Assembly (NCBI GenBank): GCA_018003315.1
Contig: JAGNEJ010000058.1
Span: 1-32,462, forward strand
From: Verrucomicrobiales bacterium
GTDB lineage: Bacteria > Verrucomicrobiota > Verrucomicrobiia > Verrucomicrobiales > V1-33
Direction: 5' to 3'
DNA: 32,462 nucleotides
Position 1 is the first letter of the stretch. Each line of letters starts with the position of its first letter. The position numbers were made by a program, and so were the translations under genes. Shown here in pieces: positions 7,143-32,462 of this stretch. Under the pieces are notes generated by a model, which was not told where the DNA came from, made no database searches, and saw only the letters and a program-made list of their open reading frames with translations.

Positions 7143-10100
7143 CTAGGGCACCAGATGGGCGCGCAATTTGATGAAGAGGCGGGGAAGGGCGGCTGCAGGG
7201 GCATGCCAGAGGAGGGTGGCGCGTCCGTTGAGGGCGGGGGTGTCACTGGTCAGGGGGACGGGCGTCCATGTGGTGATGTCGGAGCTGGTGACGGCTTCGA
7301 GGATCACGTCTTCGACGCCGGTGTGGCGCTCCGTCGTGATGGCAATGGTGCCGTCGGCATCGGCTGTTGCCATGAAGAACGGAACGCTGTGAGGGTCGGA
7401 GTCGCTGGAGCCGAGTGCGTGCTCGATGAGTGCGGGCCAGCCGTCGCTGTCGGAGTCGGCGCTGCTGTTTCCCGCAAAGGAGATGGCATCGGTGCCGCCG
7501 GGGTTGCCGCCGGAAGCGGTGCTGGCCCGCCAGTTGGCGGCGTCGCCGTGGTTGACGACGGACTGCGGCCGCATGAGCACCAGTGAGCCACCGTCACCGT
7601 CTGCAAGCGGCGTCCACGGTGCGCTGTCGCCGTAGGTGACCGCCGTGATGAGATTGCCGACGAGGTCCACGAGGGTCAGGGTGTCAGCGGAATTTTTGAG
7701 TCCGCCCGCGAAAACGCCTGCGGGGATGACTCCGGAATAGGCGGCGGCAAAAGCGGCGGCATCTTTCACGACCACGGTGCGCTGGCCGGGGGCGAGGGTG
7801 AGATCGGGAAAGGTGAACACGATGCCGCTGGTGAAGGATGCCCCGTTGAGTGAGGCGCTGCTCCCGCCAACATTCATCAGCTCGACAAATTCGGTGAGGT
7901 CATCGGGACCGGGCGGGTTGTAGTTGATCTCAGTGATGAGCACCCGAGGCGGCGGAGGTGCGAAGCCGGCTTCGGCGAGCGGACTCCACTCGCCGCCGTT
8001 GAGCACGCGGGCCTTGATCGTCACCGGTTGCGTCACGGAAAGCGGTGTGCTGTAGATGCTGGCCGCAGCTCCCACGGCACCGCCCACGGCACGGGGGTCC
8101 GTGCCGTCGGTGGTCAGGTAGAGGGTGCCGACGCCGTTGGGATTGGTGAGGGTGACGGTGCCGCCGACCACGACCGTGCCGCCGAAGGGGGCGATGCCCG
8201 GTGCGGCGGTCACCGGCCAGAGGCCCTGCGCACGACACTGATTGAGGAAGGTGGGCGTGCGGCTCAACCAGTTGGTCCAGTGGCCCTCGTAATACCCTGA
8301 GCCGTGAATGGCACTGACGGCATCCTTCACCTGATCGCGCAGGCTGTTCCAGCGGGCCTGGGTGTTGGCGGCAGTCATCACGCCGTTGTTGAAGAAATGC
8401 CGCTGGATGCGGTCCGCAAAAAGCAGCCGCCATTCGGGGCTCTGAATGAACCGCTGGATGCACAACTTTCCCATGAGTGTTTCCGTGGCAGGAGAGGTGT
8501 TGAGCAGGTCGGTGGTGAAGCTGTCGTGGGTATTCGCCTGACCAAACATTCCCAGCGCCCCTTCGGCGTCCCACATGCTGAAGCGCCAGAGTTTGCCCGC
8601 CGCGCGTTCGCGGCAGAAGGCGTAGTTGTTGTGCGGCCAGTCCTGGGTGGCACCCCAGGCATTGGCGATGTAGTAGTCCGCAGCATTCACCGGATCCCAC
8701 AAGGCCGCCCCGGTCTGGTAGTTGGCCAGCACGGAAAAGTCATTGCCGCGGAAAAATGCGCGCATGGTGTTGAAGGCGGTGCTGTCGCCGCTCTCCCATT
8801 CGCCGGTGACGTTTACGTCCCATTCATTCTCCGAATCGTAAAATTCCCGGAAGAAGCTGTCGCGGGGGCGCTCGGTTGGGTTGAAGTAGCCTTTGAGCTT
8901 TCCGTTCAGAAAGACCGTGGCGAAGAATCCGATGGGCGACGGGTGGTTGCCCATGAAACGAAACGTGCGGCGCATCCACTCATCGATGATGAAGGGATTG
9001 TAAGCGTCGTTCTTGCCGGCACGCAGGCGCAAGGTATCCCACTCGTGGACATGGGAACCGGGGATGAAACCGTCGCTGCGCAGGCGATCCATGCCCAACT
9101 CGCCGCGGAAGAAGAGATTCATTTGAGGTTTGGTGAGCCAACTGGCGTTCCAGTCGGCGTTCTCAATGTCTTCCAGGCGGTATTTGGGGCGACTCCACGG
9201 GCTACCGGCGAAACGCACGCCCAACTCCGTGCGCAACTGCACGGAATTGTCAGTGCGCACCATTTCCAGCACGGCGGGGCGCTCCACCGTGCGGCCGCTT
9301 TGCAGACAGAAGTTGTAGTCGGTGGTGGTATTTGTCGGCACCCAGTCATTGCCGGGCCATGATCCGCCGACGGTGGAGAAAATGCCGTTGGGCTTGTAAA
9401 ACGTGCGCTCATTTTGACCTGTCAGGAAAATGGCGGGCAGGCTGCGCACGCCAGCGCTGAAGTTGAGCGCATAGTTTCGCGTGAGGATGGCGGATGGCAG
9501 CATCCCTGGGGCGAACGTGCGGGCACGCAGCGTGCTGCCGGATGCCTGGGTGAAAACGAAACTGGTGCCATCCGGGGGCGAGAGCAGGCTGCCGGGAATG
9601 ACAGTGATGGAAGGATAGCCAGGACCAGTCCAGCCCACGGCCAGATTGTCCCCGCCGGAGCCTTCGGCCTGGCGCGCCTCGATGTAATAGCGCTGTCCGG
9701 CCACCAGATTCTGCGGCGCGCTGCGCTGGCTGGGGAACTTGGTCCACTCCCGCGGGGCGGCCCAGTTTCCCTGGATGTAGGCGATGCGCACGCGGCTGGC
9801 CACCTGGTCGTTAGGGCTGAGCCAGAGTTCGCCACCGTCGTCAGTGGCGAGATAGAACGTGTAGTCCCCGCTCTGCGTCACCTGGACATGGCCGCTCACC
9901 CGCTGGCCGTACCAGTCGGCCACATGCGATGGGGATTCGAAGGTGGCAAGCCCGCCGACGCCCGACGGCGCGGTGCCCACCGGCAGGCTGGCCGGTGGAA
10001 CGAAGGTATTCGCCGGGCTGTTCCACACCTCGCGGAGAATCCAGCCCGCACCGGGTCCGTTGCTCAAGGGCGGCGGTTGCGCTGCCACCGGGCCGGTGTA

Positions 10101-12008
10101 GAGCGGGCTGGATGGCGTCGGCTCCGAACCGTCCAGCGTGTAGCGAATCTGCGCACCCGGCGCGGCCGCGCCCAGCGTCACCAGCACCGGGCTGTCATAG
10201 AAGCCAGTTTCCTTGTCCGCAGCAGGCTGGTCCGCCTTGGCGGAGAAAACGCTTCCACTATTTGCCGCACCGGGCGTGGCGGTGTCAAAATACCGCCACT
10301 GGCCGCTGGTGCCGTCGAGTCCCCAGGTATGGTGGAAATTCTGCTCGGGCACCTGCGTCGCTTCATGCACCAGCAAGCCGCTCGCATCGCGCAAGCGCAC
10401 CGATTCGCCCTCATCTTTCAGATCGAAATTGGTGTGCAGCAATCCCGATGCGGGCTTCCGGTCGCGTCCGCTGCAGGCCACCACCAGATAGCCATCCGCG
10501 GGGATCACCGCGCCTGCTGGAAACGTCCATTTCGCAGGCGCATTGTTGTCATCCGTCAGCGCCCAGCCGCCGATGTTTACCGGCGCGGAGGTGGTGTTCC
10601 TGAGTTCGATCCAGTCGAAAAACTGGGGCCCCTGGAGGATGCCCGGCGGGGGCATGACGGCAAATTCCGCCGTGGGTATGAAGTAGCGCCAGAGCGAGTT
10701 CTTGGTTGCAAAAGTCAGCGGTTGGGAGCCGGAAGCGGAGAACTGCACGTCGAGCATGAGATCGCTGCTGCCGGTGCCGGCATTGTGCAGTTGCGCGGCG
10801 ATCACGTTGGCACCCACACGCAGATGATTTTTCACCAGCGGAATGGCCGCCGCCACTCCGGGCAGAGGATTGCCGAAACGCCCGTTGTCGGTGCTGGCAT
10901 TGTGGACAGTGGCGGCAGTGTTGAACGCCACCAGGGTGCCGGGAGCGCCGGGGAGATTGGCGCGGGAGATTTCATGGCCGTTGAGAAAGAGCACGTAGCC
11001 GTCATCCCAATCCACCGTGAGATTTAGTGCGGAAATGCCGTCGATCTGGGCCTGGGTCAGGTCGAACGTGCGGCGCATGTACACCGACATGCGGGAGTTG
11101 TACATGGAACCCAGGTTGGTGCTGCACTGGCTGCCTGCCACATTGGAAGCGCGGTAGAAATCGCCGGTGGTGGTATTGGAATCATAGCCCAGAGCCCCAG
11201 GCGCCTCCGTCCACGCGGAGGCGGGGGCGTAGTCCACCTGTGTCCAGTCCGGACCGGGGATTTGCGGACCGATGATGTCTGCTGCATCCAGCAACCCGCC
11301 GCTGGGCTCGTGCACCCCCACCATGTAATGCCACACGGCGTTCGGAGCGATCAATGCCTGCGGCGCGGCGCCGCCAATACGCAGCGTCGTGTCGCACCGG
11401 AAGCGTCCGCCGCCCTGCGCCGTCTGGGGTGGATCATTCGCCCCCTCGGCCAGCGCGTTGTTCTGGCATTGCAGGGCGATCGTGTTCACGCCCTCATGCA
11501 GCAGGGCGTTCACTGCACCGAGGATGATCGTTTCCGCCGCACCGGCATCATGCAGATTGAAGGCTGGCTGGTCGTGAAAGACGAAACTGCCCACCGGACC
11601 CAGGTTGCGCCGCGCCACCTCGACGCCGTTGATGTAAACCAGGAGCCCATCCGCATAGCTGGCCACCAGTTCCAGCGGATCGGTCAGTGCCGCCTGGGCC
11701 GCCGTGAGCGTGATTTCGGTGCGCAAATACAATCCTGGCGTGATTCCTAACATTCGGGTGGAGAGATTGGTCCACTCGCCGCCAACCCCGAATCCAAACG
11801 GTCCCGGCCCCATCGACACAAAGCACGCAGGCAGCGGCCCCGGATCGCACCAGCGTTGGCCCAGCGGCCCCAGACGCGGCGGGGATCCGGCTGGAAACTG
11901 CAGAACGCGGTCCGAATGGGCGGCTGAAAATTCGTTGATGACGACGGACTGAGCCGCAGCGGCTGCCGCTGTTAGGCTCAGCGCGAAGAGGAAGCGTAGG
12001 GGTTTCAT
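7143..12008 (-). CDS. Secreted lamin-tail / PA14 / CotH multidomain protein
   Basis: This 1621-residue protein starts at MKPLRFLFALSLTAAAAAAQ, a clear signal peptide; the frame stays open upstream to 12548 but only through the intergenic repeat. Order of parts: INEF lamin-tail start (about 22); two related beta-sandwich modules (about 90-176 with DGLLVYINGVEVARRNL and about 305-423 with DGYVLFLNGHEISRANL); a lamin-tail domain (about 456-530); a chitobiase-type C-terminal module (614-645, RYTLDGSEPTPSSPLYTG); PA14 (653-800); a CotH-kinase-like domain (about 863-1200, with NPTERPRDSFF and WDAEGALG, D1147/E1149 as likely metal ligands); a second chitobiase-type module (about 1290-1340); a second lamin-tail domain (1356-1456); and a tail with DSDSDGWPALIEHALGSSDSDP. 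PA14 and lamin-tail domains bind carbohydrate or surfaces in other proteins; CotH proteins phosphorylate protein substrates. The combination suggests a surface or matrix protein. It is probably the last gene of the left-running unit. Confidence 0.88.
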   Translation of the reverse strand: MKPLRFLFALSLTAAAAAAQSVVINEFSAAHSDRVLQFPAGSPPRLGPLGQRWCDPGPLPACFVSMGPGPFGFGVGGEWTNLSTRMLGITPGLYLRTEITLTAAQAALTDPLELVASYADGLLVYINGVEVARRNLGPVGSFVFHDQPAFNLHDAGAAETIILGAVNALLHEGVNTIALQCQNNALAEGANDPPQTAQGGGRFRCDTTLRIGGAAPQALIAPNAVWHYMVGVHEPSGGLLDAADIIGPQIPGPDWTQVDYAPASAWTEAPGALGYDSNTTTGDFYRASNVAGSQCSTNLGSMYNSRMSVYMRRTFDLTQAQIDGISALNLTVDWDDGYVLFLNGHEISRANLPGAPGTLVAFNTAATVHNASTDNGRFGNPLPGVAAAIPLVKNHLRVGANVIAAQLHNAGTGSSDLMLDVQFSASGSQPLTFATKNSLWRYFIPTAEFAVMPPPGILQGPQFFDWIELRNTTSAPVNIGGWALTDDNNAPAKWTFPAGAVIPADGYLVVACSGRDRKPASGLLHTNFDLKDEGESVRLRDASGLLVHEATQVPEQNFHHTWGLDGTSGQWRYFDTATPGAANSGSVFSAKADQPAADKETGFYDSPVLVTLGAAAPGAQIRYTLDGSEPTPSSPLYTGPVAAQPPPLSNGPGAGWILREVWNSPANTFVPPASLPVGTAPSGVGGLATFESPSHVADWYGQRVSGHVQVTQSGDYTFYLATDDGGELWLSPNDQVASRVRIAYIQGNWAAPREWTKFPSQRSAPQNLVAGQRYYIEARQAEGSGGDNLAVGWTGPGYPSITVIPGSLLSPPDGTSFVFTQASGSTLRARTFAPGMLPSAILTRNYALNFSAGVRSLPAIFLTGQNERTFYKPNGIFSTVGGSWPGNDWVPTNTTTDYNFCLQSGRTVERPAVLEMVRTDNSVQLRTELGVRFAGSPWSRPKYRLEDIENADWNASWLTKPQMNLFFRGELGMDRLRSDGFIPGSHVHEWDTLRLRAGKNDAYNPFIIDEWMRRTFRFMGNHPSPIGFFATVFLNGKLKGYFNPTERPRDSFFREFYDSENEWDVNVTGEWESGDSTAFNTMRAFFRGNDFSVLANYQTGAALWDPVNAADYYIANAWGATQDWPHNNYAFCRERAAGKLWRFSMWDAEGALGMFGQANTHDSFTTDLLNTSPATETLMGKLCIQRFIQSPEWRLLFADRIQRHFFNNGVMTAANTQARWNSLRDQVKDAVSAIHGSGYYEGHWTNWLSRTPTFLNQCRAQGLWPVTAAPGIAPFGGTVVVGGTVTLTNPNGVGTLYLTTDGTDPRAVGGAVGAAASIYSTPLSVTQPVTIKARVLNGGEWSPLAEAGFAPPPPRVLITEINYNPPGPDDLTEFVELMNVGGSSASLNGASFTSGIVFTFPDLTLAPGQRTVVVKDAAAFAAAYSGVIPAGVFAGGLKNSADTLTLVDLVGNLITAVTYGDSAPWTPLADGDGGSLVLMRPQSVVNHGDAANWRASTASGGNPGGTDAISFAGNSSADSDSDGWPALIEHALGSSDSDPHSVPFFMATADADGTIAITTERHTGVEDVILEAVTSSDITTWTPVPLTSDTPALNGRATLLWHAPAAALPRLFIKLRAHLVP

Positions 12009-12096
12009 CCGGGGAGAATCGGGAAACTTTACCTGCCCGCGCCGTGAGGCGTCGAGGGATTTTTTCCCCGGCGAGGATCTCGCGCGTCCCTCGCTG

Positions 12097-12164
12097 AACC
12101 ACCGGTTGCCGGTCGGCAAGCCTCCCGCTTGATCATGCCGCTCATTTTGACCGCGCACTGGAAT
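12097..12164. repeat. Dispersed hairpin repeat, copy A
   Basis: These 68 bases match 26948-27015 at 57 of 68 positions without a gap. Identical blocks include AACCACCGG, GGCAAGCCTCC and TGCCGCTCATTTTGA. A hairpin TTGCC/GGCAA with a 4-base loop sits at 12106-12119. It occupies most of the 166-bp gap between the glycosidase and the lamin-tail/CotH gene. Similarity fades upstream toward about 12070. Confidence 0.8.
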
Positions 12165-12174
12165 AAACGGCAGG

Positions 12175-14793
12175 CTAGTTTTCTTCGACCTCATACCACA
12201 GCGTACGCCAGCGTGGACCGATTTCGAAGGCAGCACCGGAATCGGCAGCCACGATCGGCACCGGCTCGCGGCGCTGGCCGCGCTCGTCGAGCGCCCACAC
12301 GGCGACGCCGGCAGTGCGCGGGAAGACGATGCGCGCAGGAACGCCTTCCACGAGTGACGGCGCACCGCCCCAGTCACGGCCGACGGTCGAATGCTCCGCG
12401 TTTTTCCACTGCATGCCGGTGTTTGCAGCAGAGCCTGCGGCGGTGAGCAGCCAGCTGCGCGGCGCACCATCCCGCGCCGTGAGGGTGATTGCCGACCATC
12501 CGTTCTGCGCGCCTGCGCCGGGTTCGATCGAAATCTCGCCGAGCGCAAACCGCTTCCCGCCGCCGAAGCCGATCACGCCTTTGCTCCGGGGAGTGTCGAT
12601 CGTCACGACGCCGCGCTTCGCGTTGCTAACATCCCACACGAGTTCGCCCGTGTCGGAGACGAAACGGTCGGTCGCGAGCCGCAGGTCAACCGGGCGCAGC
12701 GCCTCAGCCGGGGCGTTGCGCCCTTCAGTGGCCAGCGCGATGCGATGCACGAGCGCCGCAGTCTCCGGCACGCCTGCATGGGTGGCATCCACGAGCTTCC
12801 ATGCGCTGGCCCGGCGCAGAATGTCGATTTCCTGCTCCCGCCCGAGCGGCGCGACCACGAGCCTCACCGCTGCGTGCACATCGCCACGCAGGAATATCGC
12901 GGCGGCGGCGGGGAAAGTCACCATTTTCACCGGGTGCTGATCCACATCGAAAAAGCCGCAGATTTGCCGTGCGTCCCAACCCTGCTGCGGACGGCCATGC
13001 GCGTAGGTGTAGGCGTAGATGGCATCCCAATCCTGCAGCGCGCCGTAGGCCGCGAGCAGCAGGAAGCCCTCGCCCGAATAGGTGTTCGGCGCGGGATGAT
13101 TGTATTCGGTGACCGCGTGCGGACGGCCGAGCACGCGGCGTGCGGCCAGGCCGGGCAGCGTGCCTCCGCGTTCATTGACCATCGTGCGGTTGTCCACAAA
13201 CCAGTTGCCCAGGTCCCATGAGCGGCCCGGAAAACGCGGATGCTGCCAGTAGGCGTGCGTGTCCGCCCATTCCATTTTCGCCATCATGTTAGGCGGCGCA
13301 CAGCCGATGATCGTCCCGGTGACGAGTCCTTTCACCGCGAGATCGACTTTCAAGAAACCGCGCATTGCCTGCCAGTAGGCGTCCTCGGTTTCCCACAGAA
13401 ACTGCATCCAGTCGCGCTGCGCGGTGGGCGTGCGTTCGCCAATGCGGTTGTGGGCAAAGACCGGAACCGCACCATTCTCAGTCTGTTCCTGCGCTGCGAG
13501 TCCGAAGACGCCGCCAGGCCGCAGCGTGATGGCCGTCAGTTCGACAACCGCGCCTGTGTTGCCGAGTGATGAGAAGCAGAGGCGCGCATTTTCGTCGCTC
13601 GCGGGTGCGTTGAAGACAAAGCTCTGTTCGCGCCAGGCCGGCGTCACCTCGGCGGCGGTGGCCAGGCCGAGATTGCTCCACGGCTCATGCGCCTGCTCGA
13701 CGCTCACGCGCACCGTCTGCGCCCGGTTTGCTCTCGCGCGAAAACGCAGCGTGCACGGCTGCCCCGCCGCCAGGCGCAATGCGCGTTGATTGAACTGCAC
13801 ATGCCAGGATTCTGCGCCGGCCTTGTCCACAGAAATGCGGACGCCGTTTCCGCTGCCGCTCACGTTGAAGGTCTCCGCCCGCGCGGCAGCGCCGCCGTGC
13901 TGTTCGAGCGTCCAGCCGTCGAGCCGAGCGGCGAAATCCGCATTGCGCAGCATCTCCGCGCCGAGCGGTTCCTCCTTCACACCCCACGCCGTCTTGAGCT
14001 TGGCCGTCGAGCCGTGCCGCACGAGCAGCCACGCGTTCCACTGCGCGCGCAGCTCGGTGCGGAAAATCTCCGGAAGCTTGTCCACGTCGCCACCGAGCCA
14101 CGAGTGGATGAGGCCGTTCTCGTTGTTGATCTCGACGAAGGCGACCGCGGGTTCTTCGGCAAAGGTGAGTCCCGTGTGCGGATTGCGGTGCGTGAGCAGT
14201 CGGCGCGCGTAATCCTTCTGCAGCGCGAGGTGTTTCGCATCGAAGAATCCGGGGATGTGGCTCTCTTTCCAGTCCAGTTTGTCGATCTCCGCCGGCAGTC
14301 CCTCGGCGCTTTTGAAATGGCGTCCGACCAGCAGATTGATGTTCGAGTAAATGCCATGCGCCTTGAGTTGCGCGATGAAATAGCCGAGCCGGTCTAGCGC
14401 GCCAGGGTCGAGTTCACCTGGTGCGCCCTTGCGCCAGATGGTGTCGCCCCACGTCGCATCCATGAAATGGAACCGCACCACGTTGATGCCGAACTTCGCC
14501 ATGCGCCCGGCGATTTTTTCCGCAGCTTCGTGTGACGGCAGCCCGGCGGAATTGGTGACATTCACTCCGAAAAAGCGAATGCGCCGCGGACCGGCGTAAA
14601 AATGCCCGTCGTCGCCGAGGCGGATGTGACCGTGCTTGCCCGCAGGCGCATCGAGCAGGTGCGCGCAGTCGGTGACGCCCGGCGAAGCATCGTCCCACGG
14701 CAGGACAAAGGGGAACAGAGCGCCAGGGGATTGGGCGGGAGCCGAAGCGGCTGCTAACGTCGCAGCAACGGCGAGGACAGGGGCAAGGTTCAT
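12175..14793 (-). CDS. Secreted clan GH-A-like glycoside hydrolase with inserted carbohydrate-binding module
   Basis: The protein has 872 residues with a signal peptide (MNLAPVLAVAATLAAASAPAQ). A TIM-barrel start is visible at about 50-240: RIRFFGVNVTNSAGLP, NVVRFHFMDATWG, then VEINNENG. E225 in the NEN motif fits the acid/base after strand 4. The second half holds WADTHAYW and AVTEYNHP, where E563 fits the strand-7 nucleophile. Between them, residues about 285-430 (MLRNADFAARLDGW ... AITLRPGG) look like a jelly-roll carbohydrate-binding module of the CBM4/9 type. The C-terminal 250 residues are beta-rich accessory domains. GH-A enzymes are retaining beta-glycosidases; the substrate is not evident. 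The ATG overlaps the DUF488 stop (ATGA, 14790-14793), so translation is probably coupled. Relatives in GH5, GH42 and GH35 share parts of the pattern. Confidence 0.8.
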   Translation of the reverse strand: MNLAPVLAVAATLAAASAPAQSPGALFPFVLPWDDASPGVTDCAHLLDAPAGKHGHIRLGDDGHFYAGPRRIRFFGVNVTNSAGLPSHEAAEKIAGRMAKFGINVVRFHFMDATWGDTIWRKGAPGELDPGALDRLGYFIAQLKAHGIYSNINLLVGRHFKSAEGLPAEIDKLDWKESHIPGFFDAKHLALQKDYARRLLTHRNPHTGLTFAEEPAVAFVEINNENGLIHSWLGGDVDKLPEIFRTELRAQWNAWLLVRHGSTAKLKTAWGVKEEPLGAEMLRNADFAARLDGWTLEQHGGAAARAETFNVSGSGNGVRISVDKAGAESWHVQFNQRALRLAAGQPCTLRFRARANRAQTVRVSVEQAHEPWSNLGLATAAEVTPAWREQSFVFNAPASDENARLCFSSLGNTGAVVELTAITLRPGGVFGLAAQEQTENGAVPVFAHNRIGERTPTAQRDWMQFLWETEDAYWQAMRGFLKVDLAVKGLVTGTIIGCAPPNMMAKMEWADTHAYWQHPRFPGRSWDLGNWFVDNRTMVNERGGTLPGLAARRVLGRPHAVTEYNHPAPNTYSGEGFLLLAAYGALQDWDAIYAYTYAHGRPQQGWDARQICGFFDVDQHPVKMVTFPAAAAIFLRGDVHAAVRLVVAPLGREQEIDILRRASAWKLVDATHAGVPETAALVHRIALATEGRNAPAEALRPVDLRLATDRFVSDTGELVWDVSNAKRGVVTIDTPRSKGVIGFGGGKRFALGEISIEPGAGAQNGWSAITLTARDGAPRSWLLTAAGSAANTGMQWKNAEHSTVGRDWGGAPSLVEGVPARIVFPRTAGVAVWALDERGQRREPVPIVAADSGAAFEIGPRWRTLWYEVEEN

Positions 14794-22003: not shown

Positions 22004-22167
22004 GGGTCAGAAGTGGCGTCAGAGGATTTACAATCCTGCCGCTGACTGGCATGGAGCAGGCGCCCGGTGGCCATCATGTCCAGACACATGAGCAGGCGCT
22101 CCGCAGGCGTCCGACGCATCATCGCGGCAAACAGCCGGGCGTTGACCTCGGGCGGCGTGTCTTTCAC
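21961..22167 (-). CDS. Small helical partner of the adjacent nucleotidyltransferase
   Basis: This 68-residue protein is read from a GTG at 22167 that overlaps the stop of the upstream gene (GTGA). The core DTPPEVNARLFAAMMRRTPAERLLMCLDMMATGRLLHAS resembles a type of short protein found next to AbiEii-like nucleotidyltransferases, with the layout DTxPExxxxxxxxxxxxxxxERLxMxxxMxxxAR. I know this pattern only by resemblance, and no function is established. The last 24 residues are not helical in character and overlap the 3' end of the LamG gene by 43 bases on the opposite strand, so this C-terminus may be a later extension. The start choice rests on the 4-base overlap and on where the conserved core begins. 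Confidence 0.65.
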   Translation of the reverse strand: MKDTPPEVNARLFAAMMRRTPAERLLMCLDMMATGRLLHASQRQDCKSSDATSDPYFRGESPGALCDS

Positions 22168-22703
22168 GGCAAAACCCGTGTCAGCATATCTGTCAGGTGC
22201 AATGCGGCTGACCATGTGTGCAGATACGCCACGTCACAGCCGGTGGCAATCAGGTTCTCCACATCCGCGAGCTGACGCTCCGAATGAGATTCCCGCGCCC
22301 AATCCAGTTTGGAGAGAATGAGATCCTCCTTGCTCACCACCCACAGGTCAAAGTCCGCCACCTTCATGCGCATGCGCCGGGTGAACTCATTCAGCCGGTA
22401 GTCCTCCCGCTTCCGCACCATGAAGTCCACCTTGATCAACGTACTTTCGTGAATCGCGTTGAAGCTGCTCTGATGCACCACTGCTTCCCGAGCGGCCTCG
22501 GCGGAGACGTAATAGTCTGCACCGAGCACCTCCGCGATGCGCCCGGCATCCTTCAAATCAAACGCCACCACCAAGTCAATGTCGCGAGTCATGCGCGGCT
22601 GGGCATGGCAGGCCAGGGCCACCGATCCTGTCAGCATGTAGTCAATCCCGGCCGATTCCAGTCGGATGGTGATGTCACGCAGGACTACGAGTTCTTCGGT
22701 CAT
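22164..22703 (-). CDS. AbiEii-type nucleotidyltransferase family protein
   Basis: The protein has 179 residues with the minimal DNA-polymerase-beta-type nucleotidyltransferase fold. Gly26-Ser27 (MLTGSVALACH) is the GS signature, TRDIDLVV carries the Asp41/Asp43 pair and KVDFMV gives the third acidic residue D93. KEDLILSKL (125-133) and the helical C-terminus with RQLADVENLIAT are typical of the AbiEii/AbiGii-like group. All catalytic carboxylates are present, so the enzyme should be active. Relatives transfer NMP to protein or tRNA, and some act as toxins of type IV toxin-antitoxin or phage-defence pairs. Here the gene comes first and is followed with a 4-base overlap by a 68-residue partner. 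No classical AbiEi antitoxin is present, so a defence role is only a possibility. Confidence 0.82.
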   Translation of the reverse strand: MTEELVVLRDITIRLESAGIDYMLTGSVALACHAQPRMTRDIDLVVAFDLKDAGRIAEVLGADYYVSAEAAREAVVHQSSFNAIHESTLIKVDFMVRKREDYRLNEFTRRMRMKVADFDLWVVSKEDLILSKLDWARESHSERQLADVENLIATGCDVAYLHTWSAALHLTDMLTRVLP

Positions 22704-27178: not shown

Positions 27179-30100
27179 ATGAAACGCTCCGCATTCTATC
27201 ACTGGATTCCCGTCCGTTTGACCGCGTTTGTCGCTCCGCTTCTCGCCGCTTCGCCGCAGGTGAGCCGCGCGCAGACATGGAACCAGGCACCCGGTGCCGC
27301 GGCGACCTACAGTTGGTCGCTGCCCTCCAATTGGACGGGCATCCTGCCCGATGCTCCCGGTGCCTTCGCCAATTTCGGCACGGTGAATCCCGCGGGCAAT
27401 GTCACCATCAATGTGGACGGCACCCGCACGGTGGGTTCCATGCTGGTGGGCGACATCAACGGCGCGCAGAGTTACAGCATCATCAGCGCGGGCACGGGAG
27501 GCGGCCTCATTTGGGACAATGGCGGGCTGACCGCGCAGTTGGACCTGCGGGCGAATGACAATGCGGGGGCCTTGATCAACACGTTCGGCCTCGGTGGTCT
27601 GGGGAACCCAGCCAATACGTTCGCACTGCCGATGGAATTGCGCAGCAGTCTGAACATCTCCACCAACACCACCTCGCAGCACGTTTTCCGCGGTCCCATT
27701 ACCGGCAGCGGGGCGCTCTCGTTTGACAGTTTTGGTGCCCACACCGTGGGGACGCAGAATCTCATCGGTCAGATTTCCCTCCAGGGGCTGAACCGCTACA
27801 CCGGCGGCACCACCATCGGGGAAGGGGTGCGGGTGGTTGTGGAAGGCGGTGTCGGCACGGGCACGGCGATGAGCTTCGGCACCGGCACCGTGACCGTGGA
27901 CAACGGCGGTCAGGCGTTGCTGTCCGGCGACCTCCGCGCCGACTACCGGAATGATTTTGTGCTCAGCGGCCTGGGCTGGAACGAGCCCACGCACGGGCAA
28001 CTGGGCGCATTGCGCTCGGATGCCAATGCCGTATTCACCGGGACCATCACCCTGGCAACGGATTCCCGCCTGGCCAGCAACCAGGGCGCAGGGGGAGTCG
28101 GCAGCATTCTCAATGGCGTCATCGGTGAATTTGGCGGTGGGCCGCCGCGCAGTCTGGAGTTTGGCCGGGCCGTGCCTCCCGGCGGCGCGGCCATGGCGGG
28201 CAGTTTCAATATCAACCACACCGCGGCCTACACGGGTGCGACCACCGTGAGCACCGGTACGCTGCGCATCGGGGCGGGCGACACCTTCGGCAGCATTGAC
28301 GCATCCAGCGGCGTCACCGTGGCTGCGGGTGCCAATTTGGCGTGGAACCGCCGGGATTTCGTAGCCCCCACCATCGCGATTAGCGGCGCAGGCAACTTTG
28401 CCCAGAACGGCATCGGTATATTGCTGCTCAACAACGGCGCGGGCTACCTCGGCACCACGACGGTCAATGGCCAGAGCAACACCTTCAATCAGCAGGGGGC
28501 CCTCGTCATCGGCAACGGCGGTGCAGTAACATACGCCCCCACCGGGAATGTTGCCCTGTCCGGCGGTGCAGACCTCATGCTCAATACCTCCAGCACCGTA
28601 CAGTTTGGCGGCGGTGGTACCGTGGGGGACCCCACTCTGCCAGTCACGCAAACGGTGGTGGGTGCTGGCAATACCAGTTCTTTCCTCATCCAACAAGGTA
28701 CGGGGACCACCATTCTCTCCGGCAGCAGTGACAACGGATCGAACAAGGCGATGGTGAATGGTGGCACCCTCATCCTCAACAAGCACACCACCGGCACCAG
28801 TCGCGCCCTGGGTGCCGGCAACGAACTTGGCCTGATCATTCGCGGCGGCACCGTGCAGTATGGTGCCGATGCCCACGGCGATCAGATTTACTCCCAGACC
28901 GATGTTGAAATCAACGGGGGGGTGCTGGACCTCAACGGAAAGTCCGACAGCTTCGACGTGCTCACCGGCGGCGGCGGCAACGTCACCGGCAGCGCCGGCA
29001 CGCTCACGCTCGGTGAGCACAACTCCACGGTGAACAACCGGCACGGTGCGCTGGGCACCGGCTTCATCCACAACGGCACCGGCACCTACCCGGCGAACTA
29101 TGGCGGGGCAATTGGGGGCGGGCTGGGTCTCACCAAAATCGGCACCGGAGCGCAGACCCTTTCCGGGACCAACACCTATACCGGCGCCACCACCATCAAT
29201 GGCGGCACCCTCGTCATCAACGGGAGCACCGCCGCGGGCGGAGTGGTGGACGTGAATGCCGCCACGCTCTCAGGCATGGGCAGCGTGGGCACGGTGAACA
29301 TGAACAACGCCGCCACCAGCATCCGTCCCGGGGCTGACGCCGGGGACATGACCATCGGCACGCTCACCGCGGCCAATATCAATGTGGTCACCGGCGGCGA
29401 CTACCGCGCCACTGTCAACGGAAGCGTCAGCGACCTGTTGAACATCACCGGAAACATCGCTCTCAACGCCGCCTCCACCGTCACGCCGGTCTTCGCCTCC
29501 GCCCCCGTCGCCGGCAGCAATGTCCTCGTGCAGTTCGCCACGGCCAGTGGCGTCTTTATTCCCACGCTGAATGCCCCGGCCGCCAACTCCACCCGCAACA
29601 CCTACGCCCTGACGCCCGGAGCCAACACCCTGAGCCTCGACATCACCGGTGCCAACCAGAACAAGACTTGGGTGGGCAACACCGGCACTTGGAGCATCGG
29701 CCTGCTGGCTGGCACCAACAACTGGTCCACCGGCGGCGGCGACAACGAGTTCGGCAACTTCGACGCCACCCGCTTTGACGACACCGGCATCACGAAAGCC
29801 GTCACCGTCCCTGCCGGAGCCATCTCCGCCATCATCATGAACAACAGCGGAGCGGGACTCGGCCAGCGGTTCAACACCCAGACCGCCTTCGCCAACGACT
29901 ACACCTTCACCGGCGGGGCCATCGTCGGCTACAGCAGCGTCGCCAAGACGGGCAGCGGCGTCTTTGTGCTAAACTCGGCCGGCAACACCTTCGAGGGTGC
30001 GGTTAGCATCAACGACGGCATCCTCCGCACCGGCAACAACACCGCGCTGGGCACCGGCACCGGGCAGACTTTTGTCAGCGGCACCGGCACGCTCGATTTC

Positions 30101-32462
30101 AACGGCCAGAGCGGCTTCAACACCGAGGTCATCAACATCGCCGGCGACGGCTACCTCAACATCGGCGCGCTCATCAATACCGGCGCGGGCCAGGTGGACG
30201 CATCCCGCTTCGTTGCTCTTACCGGTGACGCCCGCGTGGCCACCTACGCCGGCGGGCGTTTCGATGTGCGGGACAACGCCGCCGCCGTCGGGGAATATGC
30301 CGACATCGGCAACCACACGCTGACCAAAGTGGGCGCGGGGCAGATCAGCCTCGTCGGTGTAGAAGTTCGCGGGAATGGCGGCATCAACATCGCCGAGGGC
30401 ATCTTGGGCGTCGAGACCACTTCCGTAGCCCAAGGACTGAGCCGCATCACCGTCAACGGCGGCAACGGCATCCACAATCCCGGCATCCTGGGACTCTATA
30501 ACAACAACAACGGCTTGTTCACCAGTCCGGTGAGCGTGATGAACAACGGATCCATCCGCGAGATGGGCAGCAATAACTTGGCCTACCTCAACTCACCGGT
30601 CACGCTCAACGGTGGACGGGCCTTCCTTGAGACCTTCGGCAATACGAGCACCGTGCTGAACCTCACCGGAGGCATCGTTGATGCCGGTGGAACCAGCCTG
30701 GTCAAATCCGGTTCCGGACGCGCGGTCATTCTGAACAACGCCTCCTTTTCATCGCTCACGGTCACCGGGGGCACTATTGACGTGGGAGACAGTTCTCTGC
30801 TCAACACCCAAACCGGCAATCTGCTGAGCAATGCAGCCGGTCACAACATCACCGCGGTGCAGAACACCATCAGCCCGTGGGCGGGTCAGGGGTCCCTTGG
30901 TGCCGCACCGCAAGTACTCCACGGCGGCAACATCCGCTACCTCGTGGACGGCAACGTCACCGCCCCCTCCGTGGACTTCACCCAGGCCGGCGGACGCTGG
31001 GCATGGTCTCCACCCACCGGCGGCACCGCTCTCGACGGCGGCGGCAACCTCTCCGCCTCCGGCAGCAACGGCATCCTGACCGTTACCGGACAAATGGGCA
31101 CCAACCCCACCGTGGGCACCGTCGCCATTGAGCGCGGCATCGCCCATTTCAACTCCGGGGCCGCGGTGAGCGCCAACACGCTCCAGGTCGGCTATATCGG
31201 CATCTCCAGCGGCTCCGCACCCTGGGTCACCGTGAACGACGGCGCGAAGCTCAATGTCCTCAATCTCATGATCGCGGATAACAATACCAACGGCGGCTAC
31301 TCCGGCTTTATCAGCCAGACCGGCGGCAGTGTGACCGTGCTCGGCTCCGACACGCAGAGCGGTAATGCCGACGGCCCGTTCCGCATCGGACACTGGCCTG
31401 GGGTCGGCTCCACCTACGACATCTCGGGCGGTGCGCTCAACGTGCCTCACGGTTCCATTGACATCGGCACCGATCAAACCGCTCCCGCCTTCAACGTCAG
31501 CAAAACCGCCAGTGTCATGGCCTATGGCCTCGAAGTGGACGGCCGCGGGGCTCACGGCCCGCCGGGCGGAATGCTGAATCTCAGTGGCGGCGCCACCATC
31601 GCCGTCGGACCCGGCGGCATCCGCCGCGGCAATGGCGGTGCCACCAACAGTGTGGTCAATGTTTCCGGCGGCACCATCCGCCAGTGGGGCAATGATGCCA
31701 CCTGGGGCGCAGGGGCTGCATTTGCCAACTCCGTCGGCACTCTGGACACCAACGGCTACGACGTGAACGTCACTGGCGGACTCGTGGAAAGCGAACCGGG
31801 CAGCGGCTTCACCAAAGCCGGAGCCGGCCACCTCATTCTCAGCCAACTCACCTCCGCCACCACTCCGCAGACGCCCGGCAATACCGTGAATTCCATCCTC
31901 GTCAGGGCGGGCACCCTCTCCGTTGTTGGGAATGTGACCAACACGGGGACCATTACCGTCACTCCCGGCGGCACGCTCTCCGGCAGCGGCAATGGCACCA
32001 CCACTGGCACTGCCGGGAATGTCACCGTAGCCGCCGGTGCCACCATCGCTCCCGGACGCCTCAGCCATGCCGGACCCTCGGTCGCCGCCCCGGCAGCTGC
32101 GGACTTCATTGGCACGGTCGGGCTGAACTCCCTCGCCATGAACGGAGACGGACGCTTCAACCTCAGCCCTAACAATACCGTCATCGGCGTCGTCAACGAC
32201 CTCGTGAACATGACCGGCACAACCCCCGGCAACCTCACCTTCAGCGCGTTTAGCACCGTCACTCCGGTCTTTAACGCTGCACCCACCATCGGCAACAACT
32301 ACGTCGTCTTCCAAAACGCAGCCGGTGGCACCACCTTGGGTCTGCCTGGCCTTTCCCCGGAAGCCGCCAACTCCGGCTATACCTTCGCCGTCGCTGCGGG
32401 TGGCGGACTATTACCCGGCACGGTCAATGACGTCGTCCTTTCGGTCACCGGCGGGGCCAACC
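27179..32462 (+). CDS. Giant surface protein with autotransporter-associated beta-strand repeats (3' end outside window)
   Basis: At least 1761 residues are read from ATG 27179, whose N-terminus MKRSAFYHWIPVRLTAFVAPLLAASPQVSRAQ is a signal peptide; the frame is open to the window end. Repeats of the autotransporter-associated type (xLxKxGxGxxxLxxxNTYTGxTTxxxGTL) are frequent, for example LTKIGTGAQTLSGTNTYTG with ATTINGGTLVING at about 650-685, AAYTGATTVSTGTLRIG, VAKTGSGVFVLNSAGNTFEG and LTKVGAGQISLVG. These fold as a right-handed beta-helix, as in secreted adhesin passengers. The composition is rich in Gly, Asn, Thr and Ser with few Lys and almost no Cys. Residues about 33-825 and 828-1761 are two homologous modules with matching starts and caps. 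An anchor (PEP-CTERM tail or beta-barrel) would lie beyond the edge. Long frames on the opposite strand are artefacts of GC-rich codon use. Confidence 0.9.
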   Translation, partial: MKRSAFYHWIPVRLTAFVAPLLAASPQVSRAQTWNQAPGAAATYSWSLPSNWTGILPDAPGAFANFGTVNPAGNVTINVDGTRTVGSMLVGDINGAQSYSIISAGTGGGLIWDNGGLTAQLDLRANDNAGALINTFGLGGLGNPANTFALPMELRSSLNISTNTTSQHVFRGPITGSGALSFDSFGAHTVGTQNLIGQISLQGLNRYTGGTTIGEGVRVVVEGGVGTGTAMSFGTGTVTVDNGGQALLSGDLRADYRNDFVLSGLGWNEPTHGQLGALRSDANAVFTGTITLATDSRLASNQGAGGVGSILNGVIGEFGGGPPRSLEFGRAVPPGGAAMAGSFNINHTAAYTGATTVSTGTLRIGAGDTFGSIDASSGVTVAAGANLAWNRRDFVAPTIAISGAGNFAQNGIGILLLNNGAGYLGTTTVNGQSNTFNQQGALVIGNGGAVTYAPTGNVALSGGADLMLNTSSTVQFGGGGTVGDPTLPVTQTVVGAGNTSSFLIQQGTGTTILSGSSDNGSNKAMVNGGTLILNKHTTGTSRALGAGNELGLIIRGGTVQYGADAHGDQIYSQTDVEINGGVLDLNGKSDSFDVLTGGGGNVTGSAGTLTLGEHNSTVNNRHGALGTGFIHNGTGTYPANYGGAIGGGLGLTKIGTGAQTLSGTNTYTGATTINGGTLVINGSTAAGGVVDVNAATLSGMGSVGTVNMNNAATSIRPGADAGDMTIGTLTAANINVVTGGDYRATVNGSVSDLLNITGNIALNAASTVTPVFASAPVAGSNVLVQFATASGVFIPTLNAPAANSTRNTYALTPGANTLSLDITGANQNKTWVGNTGTWSIGLLAGTNNWSTGGGDNEFGNFDATRFDDTGITKAVTVPAGAISAIIMNNSGAGLGQRFNTQTAFANDYTFTGGAIVGYSSVAKTGSGVFVLNSAGNTFEGAVSINDGILRTGNNTALGTGTGQTFVSGTGTLDFNGQSGFNTEVINIAGDGYLNIGALINTGAGQVDASRFVALTGDARVATYAGGRFDVRDNAAAVGEYADIGNHTLTKVGAGQISLVGVEVRGNGGINIAEGILGVETTSVAQGLSRITVNGGNGIHNPGILGLYNNNNGLFTSPVSVMNNGSIREMGSNNLAYLNSPVTLNGGRAFLETFGNTSTVLNLTGGIVDAGGTSLVKSGSGRAVILNNASFSSLTVTGGTIDVGDSSLLNTQTGNLLSNAAGHNITAVQNTISPWAGQGSLGAAPQVLHGGNIRYLVDGNVTAPSVDFTQAGGRWAWSPPTGGTALDGGGNLSASGSNGILTVTGQMGTNPTVGTVAIERGIAHFNSGAAVSANTLQVGYIGISSGSAPWVTVNDGAKLNVLNLMIADNNTNGGYSGFISQTGGSVTVLGSDTQSGNADGPFRIGHWPGVGSTYDISGGALNVPHGSIDIGTDQTAPAFNVSKTASVMAYGLEVDGRGAHGPPGGMLNLSGGATIAVGPGGIRRGNGGATNSVVNVSGGTIRQWGNDATWGAGAAFANSVGTLDTNGYDVNVTGGLVESEPGSGFTKAGAGHLILSQLTSATTPQTPGNTVNSILVRAGTLSVVGNVTNTGTITVTPGGTLSGSGNGTTTGTAGNVTVAAGATIAPGRLSHAGPSVAAPAAADFIGTVGLNSLAMNGDGRFNLSPNNTVIGVVNDLVNMTGTTPGNLTFSAFSTVTPVFNAAPTIGNNYVVFQNAAGGTTLGLPGLSPEAANSGYTFAVAAGGGLLPGTVNDVVLSVTGGAN

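What the first reader, a model, noticed from the sequence alone, without database searches (positions are those of the whole stretch)
27179..32462. Giant surface protein is a tandem array of about 800-930-residue passenger modules
The cap DLLNITG...STVTPVFASAP...VLVQFATASG at about 752-800 recurs as DLVNMTG...STVTPVFNAAP...YVVFQNAAGG at about 1674-1725. After the first cap, the sequence QNKTWVGNTGTW...NNWSTG (about 828-850) mirrors the N-terminus AQTWNQAPGAAATYSW...SNWTG. The window stops at SVTGGAN, where the next module would begin by analogy with ITGANQNKTW. This points to whole-passenger duplication beyond the short beta-strand repeats.
Basis: seen in the sequence. Interest (0 to 1): 0.5.

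Follow-up and report, generated by a model that had tools for sequence, protein, structure and literature searches.

The report
Three-part beta-helix surface protein
A large bacterial surface protein seems to be built from three autotransporter-like stalk units in a row, the first two closed by clearly related end-caps; the caps, not the whole units, look duplicated, and many related genomes carry the same kind of joint.

Summary
The observation largely holds and the predicted next module exists, but 'whole-passenger duplication' is not what the sequence shows. The cap at residues 735-826 recurs at 1656-1759 (42 of 84 aligned residues identical; z 12.4 against shuffles; each the other's best match). 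The window is a whole contig that breaks inside the gene. Contig C18 of the same genome overlaps its end (last 126 bases identical) and continues in frame into a third module; after one frame change it ends in a sub-threshold PEP-CTERM-like tail (about 2,373 aa expected). Without the caps, modules 1 and 2 are no more alike than modules of other proteins (rank 56 and 51 of 58), and each of the three matches modules of other proteins better. The N-terminal 'mirror' is not detectable. The shared grammar, a cap followed by a ~66-residue W...NW...F.N.D.V.FDD segment, occurs in 58 of 112 genomes (own included), in many listed ORFs two or three times, ahead of PEP-CTERM-like, 'FxRLxV' or autotransporter-barrel ends in the loci read. 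I read it as an exported, PEP-CTERM-sorted stalk of serial beta-helix units, made by old cap duplication plus exchange or deep divergence of interiors: a new member of a known kind.

The parts
27179..32462 (+). gene for the modular surface protein, 1761 residues in the window, cut by the end of contig C139
   Evidence: window = whole contig
27179..27271 (+). probable Sec signal peptide, residues 1-31 (MKRSAFYHWIPVRLTAFVAPLLAASPQVSRA)
   Evidence: read by eye; no predictor was run
27272..29656 (+). module 1, residues 32-826
   Evidence: bounded by the signal peptide and the second start segment
29129..29218 (+). PATR / TIGR02601 repeat, residues 651-680, the best of four stretches
29381..29656 (+). 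cap 1, residues 735-826
   Evidence: matches cap 2; comparable caps of relatives
29657..29854 (+). start segment of module 2, residues 827-892
   Evidence: 23.8 bits in a model without window rows
29657..32455 (+). module 2, residues 827-1759
   Evidence: bounded by start 2 and the end of cap 2
32144..32455 (+). cap 2, residues 1656-1759
32285..32462 (+). overlap with contig G000:C18:1-178 (97%; last 126 bases identical), beyond which the third module begins
   Evidence: C18 translation

Best explanation
The gene encodes an exported, surface-anchored stalk of about 2,373 residues: a signal peptide, three serial PATR/beta-helix units (about 795, 933 and 612 residues) and a PEP-CTERM-like tail. 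Units 1 and 2 end in a cap like the end of an autotransporter passenger, and the next unit starts at once with a W...NW...F.N.D.V.FDD segment; unit 3 ends in a more distant cap before the tail. Most likely the Sec system exports the chain, each unit folds as its own beta-helix and its cap closes it, so that a long rod is made from units folded separately. An exosortase then processes the tail and the rod stays at the surface, probably for adhesion or matrix contact. Shown: cap repeat, junction grammar, PATR repeats, exosortase genes, no barrel found, a third module on an overlapping contig. Inferred: the contig join, beta-helix fold, capping role, processing, adhesion. The array arose by old cap duplication plus exchange or deep divergence of interiors, not by recent copying of whole passengers.
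For: PATR and TIGR02601 hits over cut-off in the window protein and on C18. The end of module 1 (residues 642-724) aligns to the PATR/beta-helix stalk of the solved autotransporter Ssp, PDB 8e7f, E 9.4e-7 (4.9e-8 with a shorter query). The end of module 3 matches positions 453-567 of the 988 of the autotransporter EprS profile, E 6.5e-13, 47.6 bits, far below that whole-protein model's cut-off of 1700. Third module on C18. Junction model in 58 of 112 genomes, own included. In the loci I chose, 61 start segments in 32 ORFs, 22 ORFs with two or more, median spacing 601 aa. Two exosortase matches and 19 PEP-CTERM matches in the genome; no autotransporter barrel. Modules no more alike than modules of other proteins outside the caps.
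Against: The PEP-CTERM-like tail on C18 scores below both curated cut-offs (11.9 bits against 20.7 in Pfam; 14.9 against 16 in NCBIfam) and is not among the 19. It lies behind one frame change; if that is real, the first frame ends at C18:1359 without the tail. C18's first 52 bases differ from the window at 5 places. The third cap is not detectably like caps 1 and 2 (z 1.8 and 0.4). No usable structure: both AlphaFold2 runs on single sequences had mean pLDDT 36.8 and 35.8. The junction alignment matched no solved structure. Middle of module 1 against middle of module 2 is slightly above shuffles (score 172, z 3.3, best of 200 shuffles 168).
Confidence: 0.66

Rival explanations
1. Whole-passenger tandem duplication, the first reader's view: modules 1 and 2 are copies of one ancestral passenger whose interiors have since diverged beyond recognition while the caps stayed alike.
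For: The two caps are each other's best match, and a model of this cap pair matched only the own genome of 288 in the order. Modules that look wholly duplicated do occur in relatives (L106, L108). The duplication is old, which leaves time for interiors to diverge.
Against: Without caps the pair ranks 56 and 51 of 58. The stretches just upstream of the caps are no more alike than shuffles (z -0.1), nor are starts 1 and 2 (z -0.9). Module 2's front half matches L116 module 1 (33% over 343 aa) and module 1 matches L124 module 1 (29% over 613 aa).
Confidence: 0.16
2. The array is broken or mis-assembled: the frame change on C18 is real, or C18 is another locus, so no anchored three-module protein is made.
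For: One frame change near C18:715-722; 5 mismatches in C18's first 52 bases. In the five stretches read from four relatives (G001, G003, G010, G011) no ORF of 120 aa or more beside hisG or beside the C18 efflux gene matched this protein (E up to 1e-8), so synteny does not support the join; in G001 only about 1.1 kb lies beyond the efflux gene before the contig ends.
Against: End-to-end overlap with 126 identical bases, the only second match of the window's end in the genome, frame kept across it, and the far side is a start segment as predicted.
Confidence: 0.15
3. A classical type Va autotransporter whose barrel lies beyond the contig end.
For: PATR repeats; relatives L110 and L111 do end in an autotransporter barrel.
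Against: No PF03797 match in the genome, 96% complete; C18 ends in a PEP-CTERM-like tail.
Confidence: 0.03

Closest known systems
PATR (PF12951) / TIGR02601 'autotransporter beta strand repeat' proteins
   Same: four repeat stretches in the window protein and further ones on C18
   Different: several passenger-like units, with caps between them, in one chain
PEP-CTERM/exosortase surface proteins
   Same: tail with PEP, hydrophobic stretch and RRRR on C18; two exosortase matches in the genome
   Different: the tail is below the curated cut-offs
Serratia Ssp, a subtilase autotransporter (PDB 8e7f)
   Same: its PATR/beta-helix stalk aligns to residues 642-724, near the end of module 1; [quoted passage not shown]
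   Different: no protease domain and no barrel found; the unit recurs in one chain; the cap itself did not match 8e7f
Multi-module proteins L106, L108 and L122 of related genomes
   Same: same cap-start junctions, PEP-CTERM-like ends
   Different: modules 1 and 2 of L106 and of L108 are 57-62% identical and L122 has two start segments instead of three, which I read as whole-module copy-number change

Membership tests
PATR / TIGR02601 repeat proteins | repeat hits over the curated cut-off | tested here: met
   47.6 bits against 27; 49.2 against 19.85
PEP-CTERM proteins | C-terminal PEP-CTERM domain over cut-off | tested here: not met
   motif visible but 11.9 against 20.7 bits and 14.9 against 16; tail lies on C18 behind a frame change
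PEP-CTERM proteins | exosortase encoded in the genome | tested here: met
   two matches, E 3.6e-57 and 9.7e-46
PEP-CTERM proteins | N-terminal signal peptide | not tested
   seen by eye; no predictor run
Type Va autotransporters | C-terminal beta-barrel PF03797 | tested here: not met
   0 matches in the genome, none in the window protein or the C18 parts
Type Va autotransporters | beta-helical passenger | tested here: inconclusive
   sequence match to 8e7f; AlphaFold2 models unusable
Tandem whole-passenger duplication | modules of one protein are each other's closest relatives over their length | tested here: not met

The most novel reading that the evidence does not exclude
Autotransporter passengers, each with its own terminal cap, act as free building units: strung in series and plugged onto any of several ends (exosortase tail, autotransporter barrel, FxRLxV end), with interiors swapped between proteins. 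If so, the cap would be a folding end-stop that works without a barrel, and surface diversity across the order would come from shuffling passengers between conserved cap-start joints.
Probability: 0.3. Interest if true: 0.5.

Novelty: new member of a known kind. Interest (0 to 1): 0.3.

Why it matters
It suggests that 'beta strand repeat' proteins of this bacterial order have a second level of order: passenger-sized units with a recognisable end and beginning. That gives a way to cut such large proteins into units for structure work, and a natural test of whether an autotransporter-type cap can work without its barrel.

Tried and rejected
A two-sequence junction model found only the gene itself and C18 at E up to 1; it was replaced by ten aligned junctions. 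Whole-protein self-BLAST with composition correction listed only the self-match; without correction the halves gave 26% identity, E 1e-31, so that figure owes at least part to composition and generic repeats (the cap fragment alone does match its partner with correction, E 7e-7). The first profile comparison failed to build its profiles (a missing file), so the ranks are from single sequences; it was repeated, where module 2 still had no homologue rows. Both structure predictions were unusable (mean pLDDT 36.8 and 35.8), so I ran no fold search. Scans of named genomes: none confirmed for the window protein (17 stretches examined); two loci with another module set (20 stretches examined, L129 and L130), carrying three and one start segments; I do not trust their record titles enough to name the order. 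A 16S gene was found but there was no collection to name it by. Synteny for the join gave no help. Neighbours give no functional hint: hisG next upstream, Laminin-G and carbohydrate-binding proteins further off. Limits: one search scored at most 30 and at most 16 candidates per genome, and their lists are cut, so counts are lower bounds; the loci were picked because they had hits, and modules were defined only in ORFs with a start segment (the C48 ORF, whose cap is the best match of the third cap is therefore missing from the module comparison), so 22 of 32 and 8 of 53 are not population frequencies. The rows of the window-free model had been collected with a model seeded by the window. On rechecking I lowered the best explanation from 0.68 to 0.66 and raised the first rival from 0.15 to 0.16, because the third cap is unlike the other two and the PEP-CTERM cut-off was not met.

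Full report
WHAT IS THERE. The window is one whole contig (C139) of a 155-contig genome. A frame of 1761 residues starts at 27179 and runs off its end. Pfam and NCBIfam see only the short beta-strand repeat: PATR, four stretches, and TIGR02601, four stretches. The genome has 70 PATR matches in all.

THE CAP REPEAT IS REAL. Residues 735-826 and 1656-1759 align with a local score of 128 against a shuffle mean of 37.8 (sd 7.3, best of 500 shuffles 72). Among ORFs of 400 aa or more from 50 loci plus the window protein, each cap is the other's best match apart from itself and the C18 overlap (cap 1: E 4e-8, next other ORF 0.016; cap 2: 1.8e-7, next other ORF 0.11). A model of the two caps matched 1 of 288 genomes of the order, the window's own, at E up to 0.001; it has two rows and at most 16 candidates per genome were scored, so distant caps would be missed. 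At conserved residues with fourfold codons, 16 of 32 third bases agree against 14.2 expected from codon bias, so the duplication is old.

THE NEXT MODULE EXISTS. The last 200 bases of the window match one other place in the genome, C18:1-178, at 97%; the last 126 bases are identical and the five differences lie in C18's first 52 bases. After about 180 more residues the module-like reading moves to another frame near C18:715-722, then runs 431 residues to a stop, ending ...IPEPSGALLTGGVVLLALLRRRRGVA. The expected total is about 2,373 residues if the frame change is an assembly error; if it is real, the first frame ends at C18:1359 without this tail. The tail is below curated cut-offs and not among the genome's 19 PEP-CTERM matches. 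The genome has two exosortase matches and no autotransporter barrel match.

MODULE GRAMMAR. Iterating from five starts, three of them from this gene, gave a start-segment model of about 66 residues; the best reversed or shuffled control had E about 0.6. With the window and C18 rows left out, the third start scores 42.4 bits, the second 23.8 and the N-terminal one 4.9, against a best of 5.8 in 200 block-shuffled controls; with the own genome left out, 39.2, 20.6 and 1.9 against 7.6. So the N-terminal 'mirror' is no better than chance here. Of the eleven internal starts printed, ten follow a stretch that I judge cap-like by eye; L034 at 661 does not. A model of ten such junctions matched 58 of 112 related genomes. 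Four of these (G000, G005, G010, G022) gave rows to the model, which leaves 54 of 108. The own genome has six matches, in C105 (two ORFs), C142, C139, C13 and C18. In the loci I then chose, 61 start segments lay in 32 ORFs, 22 of them with two or more, spaced 273-1402 aa, median 601. By a pattern on the last 45 residues, 13 of 32 ORFs end PEP-CTERM-like, 8 'FxRLxV', 2 barrel-like, 5 otherwise, and 4 run off; a Pfam scan confirmed the autotransporter barrel in the two.

NOT WHOLE-PASSENGER COPIES. Among modules cut at start segments, the window's module 1 matched L124 best (63 bits), module 2 matched L116 (97 bits), the front of module 3 L124 (95 bits) and its end L115 (125 bits); siblings reached 39-45 bits, the module 1-2 match being the cap. 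The third cap's best match is the C48 ORF of the own genome, 49% over 153 aa, which has no start segment and is not in the module set. Caps 1 and 2 are not detectably like cap 3 (z 1.8 and 0.4). Over all 53 modules with a sibling, window module 3 counted as two pieces, the sibling was best for 8; orthologues of whole proteins in the set take many of the other places. In profile comparison module 2 ranks 53 of 58 for module 1, and 56 of 58 without caps; the reverse 39 and 51 of 58 (module 2's profile had no homologue rows). Middle against middle is z 3.3, which generic repeats can give. By contrast L106 and L108 each hold two modules 57-62% identical, and L122 has one start fewer.

FOLD AND FUNCTION. 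Residues 642-724 match the stalk of Ssp (8e7f) at E 9.4e-7 and 4.9e-8; the match stops short of the cap. From passages of PMC9977779: Ssp's stalk has a PATR, last rungs like an autochaperone domain, and a beta-hairpin cap. From passages of PMC5767081: autochaperones sit at the passenger's C-terminal end and are required for secretion and folding in several tested autotransporters. My inference is that each module is a passenger-like beta-helix closed by a cap. The junction alignment itself matched no solved structure. AlphaFold2 on single sequences was useless. Adhesion is a guess from the class.

KNOWN OR NEW. Passages of PMC4960237 report both autotransporters and PEP-CTERM proteins in Akkermansia muciniphila. 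Nine searches for PATR, PF12951, TIGR02601, PEP-CTERM with autotransporter, and Verrucomicrobi or Akkermansia with autotransporter and related words listed no title or abstract opening that describes this cap-start grammar. I saw listings only, apart from passages of the three papers named; two searches listed 15 of 157 and 15 of 182 papers, and many papers are not in the library. That the organism is a verrucomicrobium is my recollection of where such proteins are common; no call names it.

Noticed in passing
L106, L108, L122 (related genomes): L106 and L108 have three start segments with two modules 57-62% identical; L122 has two. Module copy number seems to change between related species.
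   Followed up: partly
L110, L111: Proteins of 3178 and 3907 aa carry the same kind of start segments ahead of a true autotransporter barrel, so similar units occur with two kinds of C-terminal end.
   Followed up: partly
L025 (G000:C48), ORF of 3471 aa: Longest PATR-bearing frame listed for the genome; its last cap is 49% identical over 153 aa to the cap of the third module.
   Followed up: no
window 7143-12548 (-) and 12175-14793 (-): Large ORFs with Lamin-tail, CotH kinase and PA14 domains, and with a carbohydrate-binding domain; possibly further surface proteins.
   Followed up: no
window 22164-22703 (-): Nucleotidyltransferase-like ORF, over Pfam cut-off for AbiEii, DUF6036 and Aminoglyc_resit; the three models may all reflect one nucleotidyltransferase fold.
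   Followed up: no
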